This document shows positions 30,501 through 59,051 of a DNA stretch of 64,000 nt, piece after piece (positions within the stretch are counted from its first letter, which is position 1; each line of letters opens with the position of its first letter). A model generated the notes under the pieces. That model did not search any database. It saw only the letters and a program-made list of their open reading frames with translations, and was not told the origin of the DNA. Both the position numbers and the translations under genes were made by a program. This stretch comes from Desemzia incerta (GTDB lineage Bacteria; Bacillota; Bacilli; Lactobacillales; Carnobacteriaceae), in assembly GCF_900115825.1 (NCBI RefSeq), contig NZ_FOXW01000003.1:1-64000 (forward strand). Reading direction: 5' to 3'.

Positions 30501-30766
30501 TTATTCTATATGATTTGTGGTGGAACCCAGCTGTAGAAGAACAAGCAGCCGGAAGAGCTCACCGTCTTGGCCAAAAGAACGTCGTAGAAGTATGGCGCTT
30601 GATCGCTGAAGGAACGATTGAAGAAAAAATCAATGCCTTGCAGCAAGAGAAAAAATCGCTATTTGATCAAGTCATTACGGAAGATCATGGGGAAACCAGA
30701 ACGATCAATCAATTGACCGAAGAAGATATCCGAGAGATTTTAAGCATGGGTATGGAATCAGTCTAA
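27530..30766 (+). CDS. SWIM zinc-finger SNF2-family helicase-like ATPase
   Basis: A 1078-aa DNA-translocating ATPase of the SNF2/Rad54-like group. The N-terminus contains a SWIM zinc finger (Cys58, Cys60, Cys69, His71 in FCECDYWKNHGFCKH). A long bacterial SNF2-associated region (about 200-600) follows, then RecA-like domain 1 with ADDMGLGKTLQVI (near 645), DESQ at motif II and LSGTPIENK. RecA-like domain 2 has SLKAGGTGLNLT and QAAGRAHRLGQ. The GTG start at 27530 has only a weak upstream AAAGTAGG. Likely role: remodelling protein-DNA complexes in transcription or repair; the target is unknown. It stands alone, with a structured repeat just downstream. Confidence 0.88.
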   Translation: MKWSIPERLIEEGRSLVDEKRVLSINASIEGKIWTADVLDDDRYRIELDGTTREQDFCECDYWKNHGFCKHTVAVELELKDREISRVMTPENAEKVAKNSINPGKELTLLFSRQFLEDTNSLYTGGKKQLQTLKLEYKIEHKPESTALIRHSGEVLVVSIRAGLDKLYVIKDLHGFLTAFSNKDKFEYKSNQWIDFSEVEVEKTDAALLQELYVQMESQNFVRGSFVEAKSIFNNKRYFVLTPSFAKTFIEKYQEEADFSFDVSGAHFKTVAFIEGRLPFGFELNSQEGAVKLNIDNNTDVYLKDYHWFLVEDKIYQPTREQLKAIQPLQSFLQRHEGNRIDIQPEDMPDFTAYVLPMISKLATVHMSEEVENTFIHEPLKTCIYFTYANEQLHAVVEFNYRHMVLSTNPEENQMPEENIQVIRDSKKEIQTLNLLNELGYQREETDYTKRLVKDEKFYEFFTNEIPLLEQTAEVYVNDSLDSIFLDQIDPDTTVDIQQEGGLLDIRFDIKGISRDEINRVLQSLMERKSFHKLDNGKLLSLESEELQQISRVLSELRSSKEFENGGISIPSYRGLELSHLLENESGVQPVLSSKFQKMVLDLNQPHSIEAELPKGINGELRGYQVTGFKWLKMLSQYGFGGILADDMGLGKTLQVITYIQSEIEEGEEKPFLIIAPASLTYNWHHELKKFAPNIRATVVSGSSEEREAQINDVVNNNVLITSYQSFRQDVDLYKQQAFSTLVLDESQMVKNYHTKTSQALRSLSVPKKFALSGTPIENKIEELWAIFQLIMPGFFPSIKKFKTLTNEKIAKMIQPFVLRRVKKDVLQELPEKIETNMFSTLTKDQKTVYLAYLQQIQETVQGMSGDDFRKNRIAILASLTRLRQICCDPRLFLDDYEGESGKLLQLKEIVSTALENNKRILIFSQFTSMLDIIQAELEKEDISSFYLSGKTKPIERINMVNKFNDGEKSIFLISLKAGGTGLNLTGADTVILYDLWWNPAVEEQAAGRAHRLGQKNVVEVWRLIAEGTIEEKINALQQEKKSLFDQVITEDHGETRTINQLTEEDIREILSMGMESV

Positions 30767-30795
30767 GAATTGTTTTTTGTAAACTGATCTTGGCG

Positions 30796-30968
30796 TAGAA
30801 ATTTCTTACAGAATTGAGTTTGCTTTGTAAGAGCCACGGGAACGCTTGGAGCCAAGGACTCCAAGCTTGCAAGCTAAAAACAAACCCTAAGTGCTGAAGC
30901 ACCAAAGGCTTGTAATTTACATTGCATCCTTTGCGTGGCTAATAGCAACCTCAATTCTTCCAGAAATT
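30796..30968 (+). repeat. Structured intergenic repeat, family B, copy 1
   Basis: About 173 nt closely similar to 56747-56917. Predicted folding: AATTTCT (30800-30806) with AGAAATT (30962-30968), a 3x3 internal loop, AGAATTGAG (30810-30818) with CTCAATTCT (30950-30958), TTGCT with AGCAA, AGCCACG (30832-30838) with CGTGGCT (30934-30940). Inside are the hairpin GCTTGGAG/CTCCAAGC (30844-30866) and a second arm tipped by GTGC-TGAA-GCAC (30891-30902). Several stem pairs differ between copies in a compensating way. No ORF and no T-run at the end. It may be a structured RNA or a non-autonomous mobile repeat. Confidence 0.8.
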
Positions 30969-31025
30969 AAAAGGTTTATATTTTAAACAATTCAAGTTTC
31001 ATCGACTCTAGATAATGAAGAATCA

Positions 31026-31094: not shown

Positions 31095-31100
31095 ATAAGA

Positions 31101-31216
31101 CGGTGCAAAAAGCACTAACTATATCACACCTCGAAGGATGCAATAGAAGGTGCTTAAGGTTACTTAAGTCTCTTTGCAGTTGATTTTGAGGGAGGGATAA
31201 ATACAAAACCAAATGG
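31101..31216 (+). promoter_or_regulatory. Long rpsB leader, possible ribosomal protein-responsive element
   Basis: From the expected start point to the ribosome site there are about 115 nt with possible stems: GGTGC...GCAC near the start, a CTTAAG-GTTA-CTTAAG hairpin near 31154-31169, and GCAA/TTGC around it. Ribosomal protein operons often carry autoregulatory leaders. No named motif is recognised here. Confidence 0.35.
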
Positions 31217-31228
31217 AGGAACACAATC

Positions 31229-32017
31229 ATGGCAGTAATTTCTATGAAACAATTGCTAGAAGCAGGAGTTCATTTTGGACACCAAACACGTCGTTGGAAC
31301 CCAAAAATGAAAAAATACATCTTTACAGAAAGAAACGGTATCTACATCATTGACTTGCAAAAAACAGTCAAATTAGCAGATACTGCTTACAAATATGTAA
31401 GAGATGTAGCTGAAAACGGCGGAATCGCTCTTTTCGTAGGTACTAAAAAACAAGCTCAAGAATCAGTTAAAGAAGAAGCACAACGTGCTGGTCAATTCTA
31501 CGTTAACCACCGTTGGTTAGGTGGAACTTTAACTAACTGGGATACTATTCAAAAACGTATTCAACGTTTGAAAAACATCGACAAAATGGAAGCAGATGGA
31601 ACTTTCGAAGTACTTCCTAAAAAAGAAGTAGGTATTTTGATCAAAGAACGCGACCGTTTAGAAAAATTCTTAGGCGGAATCAAAGATATGCCTAGAATTC
31701 CTGACGTGATGTTCGTAGTTGACCCTCGTAAAGAACGTATCGCAATTCAAGAAGCTCACAAATTAAACATTCCTATCGTTGCAATGGTTGATACTAACTG
31801 TGATCCAGATGAAATCGATGTAGTAATCCCATCTAACGATGATGCTATTCGTGCAGTTAAATTGATTACTTCAAAAATGGCTGACGCTATGATCGAAGGA
31901 AACCAAGGTGAAGACGAAGTAGTTGAAGAAACTTTCACTGCTGAAGCTCCAGAATCAACTGAAACTTCTTCTATCGAAGAAATCGTAGAAGTTGTTGAAG
32001 GCGACAACGCTGAATAA
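31229..32017 (+). CDS. rpsB: 30S ribosomal protein S2 (uS2)
   Basis: Component of the small subunit near the neck and platform, needed for binding of S1-type proteins and for initiation. The 262-aa protein starts [27 protein letters not shown] and contains [12 protein letters not shown] and the conserved DTNCDP. The C-terminus is a long acidic extension of about 35 residues (many Glu, Thr). GGAGG precedes ATG 31229. It is followed by a hairpin and then tsf, the usual rpsB-tsf order. Confidence 0.97.
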
Positions 32018-55442: not shown

Positions 55443-56585
55443 ATGGCAAAGAGAGATTATTATGAAGTTCTGGGTGTGTCTAAAGGAGCATCTGACGATG
55501 AGATAAAAAAGGCTTATCGAAAGTTGTCGAAAAAATACCATCCGGACATCAACAAAGAAGCTGATGCAGATGAAAAGTTCAAAGAGATTGCTGAAGCTTA
55601 TGAAGTCTTAAGCGACGCTAACAAACGAGCTGCATACGATCAATACGGTCATGCCAGCACAGATCCTAATTTTGGAGCTGGTGGCGGATTTGGCGGAGGC
55701 GGCTTCGGAGGCAGTGGATTTGGCGGTTTTGAAGATATTTTCGATTCGTTCTTCGGTGGCGGAGGTCGTGCAAGATACAATCCGAACGCACCTCGTCAAG
55801 GGGAAGATCTGCAATACACTTTAGATCTGGAATTTGAAGAAGCTGTTTTCGGAAAACAGTCAACGATTCGCTACAATCGCAAGCAAGAATGTGAAACGTG
55901 TCATGGAGACGGTGCTAAACCAGGTACGTCACCAGTGACGTGTTCAAAATGTTCTGGTACAGGTTCAATCAACGTGGAAAGAAACACACCGCTTGGAAGA
56001 ATCCAAACTCGTTCAGTTTGTGATGTATGTAATGGTACTGGTCAAGAAATCAAAGAAAAATGCCCAACATGTGTGGGTGCTGGACACGTGAAAGACCGTC
56101 ACACGGTTAAAGTCACTGTTCCTGCCGGAGTAGAAGACGGCGATCAAATGCGTCTAAGCGGACAAGGTGAAGCTGGTAAAAACGGAGGACCTTACGGAGA
56201 TCTATACGTGATTTTCCGCGTCAAACCAAGCAAACAATTCCAACGCCGAGGTGCTGAAATTTATTACGAAGCACCAATTCATTTCGTGCAAGCTGCTTTA
56301 GGAGACGAAATCCAAGTACCTACTGTCCACGGAAAAGTGAAATTGAAAATCCCAGCTGGTACACAAACAGGAACGACTTTCCGTATCAAAGGAAAAGGAG
56401 CTCCAAGGTTGAGAGGTACCGGTCAAGGAGATCAACACGTTAAAGTAAACATCATTACACCGAAGAACCTAAACTCTAAACAAGCCGAATTATTGAGAGA
56501 ATTCGCTAAAGCCAGCGACATTTCTATCACAGAAGAAGACGGCTCATTCTTCAACAAAGTAAAAGACGTCTTTAAAAAAGATTAG
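55443..56585 (+). CDS. dnaJ: Chaperone protein DnaJ (Hsp40)
   Basis: Co-chaperone that delivers substrates and stimulates DnaK ATPase. The 380-aa protein has the J domain ([22 protein letters not shown] in YHPDINKE), a Gly/Phe-rich linker (about 72-105), four zinc repeats ([32 protein letters not shown]) and the C-terminal substrate-binding domains. ATG 55443 follows GGAGGGAAAG; the frame open from 55422 begins upstream of that site. It has its own promoter behind the dnaK terminator. Confidence 0.96.
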
Positions 56586-56706: not shown

Positions 56707-56746
56707 GCAGAGAGCGTAACAAAATCTTCAATTTGTAAAGTTGGTA

Positions 56747-56917
56747 TAGAAATTTCTTCCAGAATCATGGCTGCTTTTGAGAGCCACGGGAGCGATTGGA
56801 GCCATGGTCTCCAATCTTGCAAGCTTCAAACAAAACCTATGCACTAAAGTGCCAAGGTTTTGTAATTCACATTGCATCCTTTACGTGGCTCCTAGCACCA
56901 CGATTCTTCCAGAAATT
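56747..56917 (+). repeat. Structured intergenic repeat, family B, copy 2
   Basis: About 171 nt related to 30796-30968. Pairs: AATTTCT/AGAAATT (56751-56757/56911-56917), 3x3 loop TCC/TCC, AGAATCATGG/CCACGATTCT (56761-56770/56898-56907, one A-C mismatch), TGCT/AGCA, AGCCACG/CGTGGCT (56782-56788/56884-56890). Inside are the hairpin GATTGGAG/CTCCAATC (56794-56816) and the arm CAAAACCT/AGGTTTTG (56831-56862) with tip GCAC-TAAA-GTGC. It lies 40 nt after family A copy 2. Confidence 0.8.
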
Positions 56918-57018
56918 TTTAGGAGTCAGGCTTAAGTGACTGAGTATTTTAACTGACGCTCTAAAATGAAGATTTAAATAGTATAGAGTTTTTACTAAGG
57001 TCTATACGTTAAAACACA

Positions 57019-57227: not shown

Positions 57228-59051
57228 ATGAATAAAAACGACTATTTGGAACGCCAGAAGCGGATCCGGAATTTCTCGATCATCGCACATATTGATCACG
57301 GGAAATCAACTTTAGCGGACCGTATTTTACAATTGACGCACACTGTAGCAGATAGAGAAATGCAAGAACAGTTACTAGATTCAATGGATCTGGAAAGAGA
57401 ACGTGGAATCACGATCAAACTGAACGCTGTGGAGTTGAACTATACTGCAAAAGATGGAGAGACATATACCTTCCATTTGATCGATACACCAGGACACGTC
57501 GACTTTACGTATGAAGTATCACGTAGTTTGGCAGCCTGTGAAGGGGCTATTTTAGTAGTAGATGCTGCTCAAGGTATCGAAGCTCAAACCATGGCTAATG
57601 TGTACCTTGCTTTGGATAACGACCTTGAAATCATCCCTGTCATCAATAAGATCGACTTGCCAGCCGCAGATCCTGAAAAAGTACGTACACAAATCGAAGA
57701 TGTTATCGGTATTGATGCCAGTGACGCAGTATTAGCGAGCGCAAAATCTGGAATTGGTATTGAAGATATATTAGAACAAATCGTTGAACGTGTACCTGCT
57801 CCATCAGGCGATGTTGATAATCCATTGAAAGCAATGATTTTTGACTCAGCTTATGATGCTTACCGTGGGGTTGTTTTGAACATCCGTGTGATGGAAGGAA
57901 TGATCAAACCAGGCGATACGATGCAAATGATGAGTAACGGTAAAACGTTTGAAGTTTCTGAAGTTGGAATCTTCTCACCAAAACCAATCAAACGCGATTA
58001 CTTGATGGTTGGAGATGTTGGTTATGTAACAGCTAATATCAAAACAGTTCAAGATACACGTGTAGGGGATACGATCACATTAGCGAATAACCCTGCTGAA
58101 GAAGCTTTAGAAGGTTACCGTAAATTAACTCCGATGGTATTCTGTGGAATGTATCCGACAGAATCATCACGTTTTGGAGATTTGCGTGAAGCCCTTGAAA
58201 AATTAGAATTAAACGATGCTGCATTGCAATTCGAAACAGAAACCTCTCAAGCTCTTGGATTTGGTTTCCGCTGTGGATTCTTAGGAATGCTGCACATGGA
58301 CGTTGTTCAAGAACGCTTGGAACGTGAATTCAATTTAGACTTAATCACTACAGCTCCGTCTGTTATTTACCATGTTAACTTAACAAATGGTGAAGAACTA
58401 GTGGTATCGAACCCATCGGAAATGCCAGAACCAGTGAAAATCGAATCCATCGAAGAACCATATGTAAAAGCTAATATTATGGTGCCGAACGAATACGTTG
58501 GAGCGGTAATGGAGATTTGCCAACGTAAACGTGGAAACTTCCTGACAATGGATTATTTAGATGAAATCCGCGTTAATGTGGTTTACGAATTGCCATTGTC
58601 TGAAATCGTCTTTGACTTCTTTGACCGATTGAAATCAAGTACTAAAGGATATGCTTCTTTAGACTACGAGATCATTGGATACAAACAAAGTAACTTATCT
58701 AAGATGGATATCTTATTGAATGGCGAACAAGTCGATGCTTTGAGCTTTATCGTCCACAAAGACTTTGCTTACACTCGTGGTAAAGGTATCGTAGAACAGT
58801 TGAAAGGAACTATTCCTCGTCAAATGTTTGAGATCCCAGTTCAAGCAGCTATCGGACAAAAAATTGTTGCCCGTTCAACCATCAAAGCCTTCCGTAAAGA
58901 TGTTACGGCTAAATTGTATGGTGGAGACCCAACGAGACGTCAAAAACTATTGAACAAACAGAAAAAAGGTAAGAAACGTATGAAACAAGTGGGATCAGTA
59001 GAGATTCCTCAAGAAGCGTTCATGTCCGTTCTGAACATTGATGAAGACTAG
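57228..59051 (+). CDS. lepA: Elongation factor 4 (LepA)
   Basis: A ribosome-associated GTPase related to EF-G, proposed to back-translocate stalled ribosomes or aid initiation and assembly. The 607-aa protein has the P-loop AHIDHGKST (near 20-28), [17 protein letters not shown] and NKIDLP, the EF-G-like domains II, III and V, and the unique LepA C-terminal domain ending [23 protein letters not shown] 57228 follows AGCAGGAAA. It stands behind its own promoter and is closed by a strong terminator. Confidence 0.96.

What the first reader, a model, noticed from the sequence alone, without database searches (positions are those of the whole stretch)
30796..30968. Repeat family B: a 172-nt branched RNA-like element with compensating stem changes
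Copies at 30796-30968 and 56747-56917 share long conserved blocks (TAGAAATTTCTT, GAGCCACGGGA, TTGGAGCCA, CTCCAA, CTTGCAAGCT, CATTGCATCCTTT, CGTGGCT, ATTCTTCCAGAAATT) and the same predicted fold: a long outer stem broken by a symmetric 3x3 loop, a middle stem AGCCACG/CGTGGCT, and two inner hairpins. Where the copies differ, pairing is mostly kept: C-G to A-T in the first inner hairpin, GTGC/GCAC to GCAC/GTGC at the tip of the second, and T-A to C-G and A-T to T-A in the outer stem (one A-C mismatch in copy 2). This is seen directly. It suggests selection on RNA structure, or a hairpin-type non-autonomous mobile repeat. I do not recognise it as a named family.
Basis: partly seen in the sequence, partly recalled or inferred. 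Interest (0 to 1): 0.78.

Follow-up and report, generated by a model that had tools for sequence, protein, structure and literature searches.

The report
Mobile DNA repeat carrying conserved RNA
Two copies of a short jumping DNA element, found across lactic-acid-bacteria relatives, hold a branched RNA-like fold that evolution has kept by matched base changes, which suggests the fold helps the element spread.

Summary
Both copies share one fold, and most differences keep pairing. The element is larger than reported: a ~254-bp non-autonomous transposon (MITE) around a ~172-nt core (30771-31024 and 56722-56975). Among 51 Lactobacillales copies with recognisable ends, the ends resemble those of ISL3 insertion sequences, and 16 have perfect 8-bp target duplications (null 0.16%). 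The sister Desemzia genome lacks both insertions. A covariance model finds the core in 34 of 295 Lactobacillales genomes (27 of the 34 multi-copy). Rfam 15 gave no match. In a 31-sequence alignment 31 of 57 pairs show two-sided change (shuffles 19.5 +/- 2.1). Three things agree: excess G-U/G-A over A-C/C-U on minus; polarity of the MITE ends; and Aerococcus ISL3 elements carrying the same RNA just 3' of the transposase gene, on its sense strand. Structure is held over long divergence while individual copies seem to decay, so selection probably acts on mobile source elements. I infer an RNA that helps mobilisation or keeps insertions harmless; function is unproven. Known kind (ISL3-type MITE), new variant (order-wide covarying RNA core shared with some autonomous ISL3 elements).

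The parts
30771..31024 (-). MITE copy 1 (254 bp), between a gene ending at 30766 (SNF2-type helicase, named by recall from its sequence) and the gene at 31229 (rpsB, by recall); strand given is that of the putative RNA
   Evidence: site empty in sister species G001
30771..30794 (+). left ISL3-type terminal repeat, copy 1 (decayed)
30796..30968 (-). structured RNA core, copy 1 (CM R1 177.7 bits, E 2.1e-47)
30800..30806 (-). outer stem P1, arm (pairs with 30962-30968)
   Evidence: A1 columns 5-11/182-188
30807..30809 (-). one side of the 3x3 internal loop (other side 30959-30961); in copy 2 it reads TCC/TCC on plus, GGA/GGA on minus
30810..30826 (-). outer stem continued, arm (pairs with 30942-30958)
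   Evidence: A1 columns 15-34/161-178
30832..30841 (-). middle stem P3, arm AGCCACG+GGA (pairs with 30934-30940 and 30927-30929)
   Evidence: A1 columns 42-51
30845..30865 (-). inner hairpin P4, with variable loop
   Evidence: A1 columns 55-83
30868..30926 (-). inner branch: P5 (30868-30872/30922-30926), conserved internal loop, P6 hairpin (30880-30894/30899-30913)
   Evidence: A1 columns 86-144
31001..31024 (-). right ISL3-type terminal repeat, copy 1
56722..56975 (-). MITE copy 2 (254 bp), between the gene ending at 56585 (dnaJ, by recall) and the gene at 57228 (lepA, by recall)
   Evidence: site empty in G001
56722..56745 (+). left ISL3-type terminal repeat, copy 2
   Evidence: 17 of 24 positions match the right one
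56747..56917 (-). structured RNA core, copy 2 (CM R1 166.0 bits, E 3.8e-44)
56952..56975 (-). right ISL3-type terminal repeat, copy 2

Best explanation
Each copy is a ~254-bp MITE of ISL3-transposase type whose interior encodes a ~172-nt branched RNA on the minus strand (SHOWN: family, ends, target duplications, covariation. WELL SUPPORTED: strand). The same RNA sits just downstream of, and sense to, the transposase gene in some Aerococcus ISL3 insertion sequences. So the MITE looks like such an element stripped of its gene while keeping RNA and ends in the same orientation, with the -10-like end on the RNA's 5' side (SHOWN statistically; the derivation is INFERRED). Mechanism I commit to (INFERRED, about 35% likely): the RNA is made mainly when an element is circular or in tandem, when the -35-like motif of one end and the -10-like motif of the other could form a promoter. 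It then acts for the element in mobilisation, for example by helping the ISL3 transposase act on its template or by regulating it there. Single inserted copies then decay; source lineages keep the fold. The confidence given is for the identity and strand, not for this mechanism.
For: Family: 34 of 295 Lactobacillales genomes, 19 of 74 genera. Covariation on a sequence-only alignment of 31 copies: 31 of 57 pairs with two-sided change, covariation score 0.259 vs 0.106 shuffled, 0 of 500 shuffles as high on all five measures, 89.4% of cells paired vs at most 42.9% when slid; on 106 model-aligned copies 52 of 57 pairs. MITE: of 102 copies with enough flank, 51 have both ends and 240-290 bp; 31 of these 51 have target duplications of at least 6/8 and 16 are 8/8, vs 6.1% and 0.16% for flanks of different copies. 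Empty sites in the sister species. ISL3 ends: GGYTCT...GTTGGT ends and 8-bp duplications of ISL3 elements. IS linkage: RNA 3' of tnp and on its sense strand in 7 of 7 G103 tnp loci given to R1 and in G020 and G281, whose tnp is 46-47% identical to that of G103. End polarity: TATAAT-like motif stronger at the RNA-5' end in 35 vs 13 copies (P 0.002), TTGACA-like at the other end in 32 vs 10 (P 0.0009), as in all 9 ISL3 elements that I picked for comparison (P values treat copies as independent). Strand: against column composition, A-C kept 0.39 vs G-T 0.21 and C-T 0.57 vs G-A 0.13 on plus, i.e. G-U and G-A tolerated on minus; single changes 18:9, 37:16, 84:34, 105:43, 93:36, 34:13 in favour of minus in six divergence bins (pairs disjoint within a bin, the same copies recur between bins). 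Source-level selection: doubles/(doubles+singles) rises from 0.09 to 0.75 with divergence. Precedent: loss of an antisense RNA of IS256, a DDE element, strongly lowered its circular intermediates (PMC10266640, passages).
Against: No transcript seen; no RNA-seq available. Most ISL3 elements examined lack this RNA: 3 of 30 tnp loci (one per genome, 30 of the 82 genomes matched) have it 3' of tnp, all three in Aerococcus, so it is not a general ISL3 part and could be cargo. No ISL3 transposase was found in the window genome or in G001 (0 matches to PF01610). The energy advantage of the minus strand (96 of 106 copies, -6.3 kcal on average) is nearly matched by composition-shuffled controls (-5.7, on 60 of the 106) and is not evidence. 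G-U is rare (about 3% of paired cells), which also fits single-stranded DNA folding. In the four Desemzia copies (L009, L012, L013, L014) the -10-like match is stronger at the wrong end. The window copies themselves show no target duplication. The tandem pairs inspected show no clean junction promoter.
Confidence: 0.75

Rival explanations
1. Insulator/UTR element: the fold matters because it keeps insertions harmless or modulates host transcripts (blocks read-through, protects or cleaves 3' ends), as proposed for BOX, ERIC or Correia-type MITEs. It is retained because harmless elements persist. (Confidences of the rivals are odds for the mechanism.)
For: Copies are intergenic (core inside an ORF of at least 100 aa in only 4 of 102) and almost never between divergent genes (1 of 98). 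In co-directed gene pairs the RNA strand is antisense to the genes 46:18 (simple ORF calling). Intrinsic terminators abut the ends in 29 of 102 copies vs 0 and 3 of 102 control stretches. Paired sites diverge less than unpaired sites even between close copies (0.029 vs 0.048).
Against: In the closest bin 16 of 43 single changes from a Watson-Crick pair break it, near what I would expect without constraint (estimate, not simulated). Conserved unpaired bases and a multi-helix branched fold are more than an insulator needs. The same RNA sits inside some autonomous ISL3 elements.
Confidence: 0.3
2. Trans-acting regulator: the RNA is a small RNA that controls ISL3 transposase expression, and MITE copies are its decoys or amplifiers.
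For: Position 3' of tnp and on the tnp sense strand; order-wide fold. Other ISL3 elements (L119, L122) have a different strong hairpin at the same place, with compensatory differences seen by eye.
Against: Complementarity to tnp was not tested. Genomes with several copies (G000, G001, G015, G187) gave no PF01610 match, so no ISL3 transposase to regulate was found there.
Confidence: 0.15
3. DNA, not RNA: the minus strand folds as single-stranded DNA during transposition or replication, and the structure is a transposase or host-protein substrate.
For: Very high Watson-Crick content with few wobbles. G-T and tandem G-A mismatches are also tolerated in DNA (general knowledge). Strand asymmetry fits single-stranded DNA as well.
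Against: ISL3-type ends and 8-bp duplications indicate double-strand DDE transposition (general knowledge). The match to the tnp sense strand is explained at once by RNA.
Confidence: 0.12
4. Passive hitch-hiker: stems persist only because the repeat spreads from a few masters, with no selection on the fold.
For: The copies are multi-copy and mobile; column shuffles do not keep relatedness.
Against: Two-sided changes exceed column shuffles, and also the slid controls, which do keep relatedness; they grow with divergence across subfamilies down to 40-60% identity.
Confidence: 0.03

Closest known systems
ISL3-type MITE of Microcystis (187 nt; PMC11448079, passages read)
   Same: Ends GGCTCTTCG as in ISL3 elements, 8-nt duplications, predicted stem-loop RNA, thought to be moved by ISL3 transposase
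   Different: Cyanobacterial, homologs reported in other Microcystis genomes; the passages read describe no branched covarying core and no copy of the core inside ISL3 elements
BOX, RUP and SPRITE of Streptococcus pneumoniae (PMC3049150, passages read)
   Same: Short intergenic repeats of a Lactobacillales member with strong predicted RNA structure, enriched near 3' ends of genes
   Different: RUP ends resemble IS630-Spn1; BOX is modular; found mainly in S. pneumoniae and S. mitis; 'covari' and 'compensatory' do not occur in that paper's main text; sequence relation to the present element not tested
omega RNA of IS200/IS605 TnpB, reRNA of IS607 TnpB (PMC8612924, PMC11061315) and IS110 bridge RNA (PMC11208158); start of abstract in search listing only
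   Same: Structured RNA encoded in an insertion sequence
   Different: Those serve RNA-guided nucleases or a recombinase; ISL3 has a DDE transposase, and no guide or target complementarity was tested here
IS256 antisense RNA (PMC10266640, passages read)
   Same: RNA of a DDE insertion sequence needed for normal circle formation
   Different: Antisense to tnp, different IS family; its fold was not looked at here

Membership tests
MITE (non-autonomous transposon) | terminal inverted repeats | tested here: met
   both ends found in 51 of 102 copies at 240-290 bp; copy 2 ends match 17/24, copy 1 only 10/24
MITE (non-autonomous transposon) | target-site duplication | tested here: met
   family: 31 of 51 at least 6/8, 16 of 51 8/8; null 6.1% and 0.16%. 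Not visible for the two window copies (copy 1 2/8, copy 2 3/8)
MITE (non-autonomous transposon) | absent from orthologous sites of relatives | tested here: met
   SNF2-rpsB site empty in G001, G010, G015; dnaJ-lepA site empty in G001, G010, G002, G003, while G015 has its own copy there (by eye)
MITE (non-autonomous transposon) | no transposase gene inside | tested here: met
   254 bp, no ORF of at least 80 aa inside; no PF01610 match in G000
ISL3 insertion-sequence family (as mobiliser) | 8-bp duplication and GGYTCT...GTTGGT ends | tested here: met
ISL3 insertion-sequence family (as mobiliser) | transposase acts on the MITE in trans | not testable with these tools
   needs a transposition assay
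Known Rfam RNA family | reaches a gathering score | tested here: not met
   0 in the window; up to E 10, only low-scoring matches far under their gathering scores, mostly outside the core; none on the element in 12 distant loci (two THF riboswitch hits lie elsewhere)
BOX/RUP/SPRITE | sequence match to those repeats | not tested
   not compared directly
RNA-guided IS systems (omega RNA, bridge RNA) | guide segment complementary to target or donor DNA | not tested
   variable P4 loop noted only; TnpB or IS110 near the copies not searched

The most novel reading that the evidence does not exclude
A DDE transposase family (ISL3) has, in part of its range, an element-encoded structured RNA cofactor made from the 3' end of the transposase transcript. 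MITEs persist order-wide because they keep this RNA and the ends, i.e. an RNA-assisted DDE transposition system.
Probability: 0.13. Interest if true: 0.9.

Novelty: new variant of a known kind. Interest (0 to 1): 0.62.

Why it matters
MITEs are usually treated as ends around filler. Here the interior is strongly conserved in structure over an entire order, and it reappears inside some autonomous insertion sequences. That makes a direct test possible of whether an insertion-sequence RNA takes part in, or controls, DDE transposition. It also supplies an RNA family that Rfam 15 did not recognise, with a working covariance model.

Tried and rejected
Named RNA family: rejected. Plus-strand RNA: disfavoured. 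My first argument for the minus strand, that it folds better in 29 of 31 copies, was withdrawn when composition-shuffled sequences showed nearly the same difference. A strand test on columns with A-C/G-U alone was not significant (32 vs 20 columns, P 0.13); with C-U/G-A added it was 35 vs 19, P 0.04. Insertion at terminators with a fixed orientation, an idea noted: rejected, 14 left vs 15 right. Phage or plasmid origin: no blastn match of one Desemzia copy (L009) in phages or plasmids, no viral contig by pattern. All ISL3 elements carry the RNA: rejected. Presence outside Lactobacillales: none seen. The class search matched 4 of 398 genomes, all in families f1, f2, f4 of the order; it used stricter filters and its output does not say how many of the 398 lie outside the order. 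The strict pattern found 30 stretches from six species, all Lactobacillales (taxonomy); it matches neither window copy exactly, so it misses many members. Some of the weakest of the 34 genomes (E near 1e-4) could be chance. Junction promoters read directly in tandem pairs: no clean -35/-10. Literature: the listings show no paper on a structured RNA in ISL3 elements or on this repeat, within that open-access library only.

Rows dropped: five antisense rows of A2 were removed before counts. Four of 106 cores lacked 420 nt of flank and left the context counts. L005, L010, L017-L019, L023-L028, L040, L041 and L045 (14 of the 45 loci then held) were left out of A1 as partial, disrupted or near-duplicate. 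For A2, 100 loci were chosen by hand from the larger set then held.

Full report
WHAT IS THERE. The two copies exist as described and fold far better than shuffled sequence. A covariance model (R1) built from 31 near-complete copies finds them at 177.7 and 166.0 bits. Its other window matches are an antisense echo of copy 1 (29.5 bits) and two weak hits of 15 and 7 bits (E 0.04 and 5.5), which I take as chance. Gene names for the neighbours (SNF2-type helicase, rpsB, dnaJ, lepA) are recalled from sequence; no family search was run on them.

HOW FAR IT REACHES. The window genome has 8 model matches and the sister species G001 22 blastn matches, some partial. Contig lengths identify G001 as Desemzia sp. 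RIT 804, so the window is a Desemzia (Carnobacteriaceae). R1 finds the element in 34 of 295 Lactobacillales genomes and 19 of 74 genera; 27 of the 34 have two or more matches (at most 9 candidates were scored per genome, so copy numbers are lower bounds). A strict DNA pattern in a collection of 84,980 species gave 30 stretches, from Desemzia, Pisciglobus, Atopococcus, Atopobacter and two Aerococcus species only. No family of Rfam 15 matches the element.

THE FOLD IS REAL. On a sequence-only alignment (A1) 31 of 57 pairs have changes on both sides, against 19.5 +/- 2.1 in shuffles; the covariation score is 0.259 against 0.106; no shuffle of 500 reaches any of the five measures. Shuffles do not keep relatedness; the slid controls do, and sliding partners by 1 to 3 columns drops pairing from 89.4% to at most 42.9% and two-sided pairs from 31 to at most 14. 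An example is the P5 pair G-C in 23 copies and U-A in 8, never broken. On 106 copies aligned to the model, 52 of 57 pairs have compensatory types and 90.5% of cells pair; that alignment leans towards the model. Conserved unpaired bases cluster in the internal loop between P5 and P6 and in the P4 loop.

IT IS A MITE WITH ISL3-TYPE ENDS. Flanks of many copies show 24-nt ends GGYTCT...GTTGGT, like those of ISL3 insertion sequences, several of which show perfect 8-bp duplications here. Of 106 cores, 102 had enough flank; 51 of these have both ends at 240-290 bp; 31 of the 51 have duplications of at least 6/8 and 16 are perfect, against 6.1% and 0.16% when left and right flanks of different copies are paired. 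The other 51 copies did not pass the end criteria; in many Aerococcaceae copies the simple end search failed. Of the 31, 19 duplications contain an A or T run of 5 or more, and intrinsic terminators abut the ends in 29 of 102 copies against 0 and 3 of 102 control stretches, on either side. The window copies are old: their duplications are not visible. The orthologous SNF2-rpsB and dnaJ-lepA intervals in G001 lack the element. G015 carries its own copy between dnaJ and lepA (by eye).

LINK TO AUTONOMOUS ELEMENTS. In genome G103 the core lies about 20 nt behind the stop codon of an ISL3 transposase (PF01610), on its sense strand, before the 3' end of the insertion sequence, in 7 of 7 tnp loci given to R1; two further copies lie next to tnp by coordinates. 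G020 and G281 have the same RNA at the same place behind a transposase 46-47% identical. All three share genus label g9, which is Aerococcus by the contig lengths of G180 and G083. Most ISL3 elements lack it: 3 of 30 loci have it behind tnp (a fourth, L136, has two cores upstream of tnp, which I read as separate MITEs). The 3' non-coding stretch is 304 and 340 nt in RNA carriers and 33-95 nt in seven RNA-less elements with clear ends (L117, L120, L121, L123, L125, L128, L140). Two related elements (L119, L122) hold instead another long hairpin there, with matched differences by eye and z -8.6 and -8.4.

WHICH STRAND. Three lines favour the minus strand. First, corrected for column composition, A-C and C-U mismatches on plus (G-U and G-A on minus) are retained about 1.9 and 4.4 times better than G-T and G-A on plus, and single changes favour minus by 2.0:1 to 2.6:1 in six bins of disjoint pairs. 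Second, minus is the transposase sense strand in the insertion sequences. Third, MITE ends are polar: the TATAAT-like end lies on the 5' side of the minus-strand RNA (35 vs 13 copies, P 0.002) and the TTGACA-like end on the other (32 vs 10, P 0.0009), as in the nine ISL3 elements I picked for comparison; P values treat copies as independent, which they are not fully. The four Desemzia copies go against this polarity for the -10 motif. If the ends abut with about 5 bp between them, the two motifs would be about 17 bp apart; this is arithmetic, not observation, and the tandem copies inspected show no clean example. The folding-energy difference is NOT evidence, because composition alone nearly reproduces it.

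WHERE SELECTION ACTS. Two-sided changes make up 9% of classified changes between copies 93-99.9% identical and 75% between copies 40-60% identical. Of 43 single changes from a Watson-Crick pair in the closest bin, 16 break it, about what unconstrained decay would give (my estimate, not simulated). So individual copies seem to decay while the lineages that spread keep the fold. Paired sites still diverge less than unpaired ones in the closest bin (0.029 vs 0.048), so some constraint on single copies is not excluded.

CONTEXT. Only 4 of 102 cores lie in ORFs of at least 100 aa. Of 98 other copies 46 lie between genes co-directed with the plus strand, 18 between genes co-directed with the RNA strand, 32 between convergent genes, 1 between divergent genes and 1 with one neighbour only (simple ORF calling). 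By the ORF list both window copies belong to the first class.

INTERPRETATION. Most likely an ISL3-type MITE derived from, or sharing parts with, ISL3 elements that encode a structured RNA behind tnp. A role of the RNA in mobilisation (about 35%) is my commitment; insulation of host transcripts (about 30%) is the main rival. There is precedent that an RNA of a DDE insertion sequence matters for circle formation (IS256; PMC10266640, passages) and that ISL3-type MITEs exist (PMC11448079, passages). MITE transcripts with strong folds are known in general (PMC10969869 and PMC3049150, passages). The searches listed no paper on this repeat or on an ISL3 RNA.

Noticed in passing
window 31095-31228: The leader of rpsB (S2, by recall) looks conserved with matched changes in G001, G010 and G015 (by eye), with no Rfam hit at gathering score; possibly an r-protein leader regulator.
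   Followed up: no
L005, L018, L019, L092 and the Aerococcus IS in L076-L082: A second repeat module (GCCGTAGGAGCAAYGCGACGTACGGATATAG-like, by eye) is inserted at differing places in the inner part of some cores, in both orientations.
   Followed up: no
L119, L122 (ISL3 elements of G188, G070): A different long perfect hairpin 3' of the ISL3 transposase, with compensatory differences between the two elements.
   Followed up: partly
L130, 3' of tnp: A third kind of structured 3' non-coding stretch (GTGAGGG...CCCTCAC), z about -4.
   Followed up: partly
L206, L207, L064: Tandem pairs of the element with starts about 240-270 bp apart, suggesting insertion next to or into existing copies.
   Followed up: partly
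L263 (G015, dnaJ-lepA interval): A MITE of another subfamily in the same interval and orientation as window copy 2: independent insertion or a hot spot.
   Followed up: no
L017, L023 (Desemzia G001): Short deletion forms joined within the core at a GCTACCAGC-like junction, arisen twice or copied (by eye).
   Followed up: no
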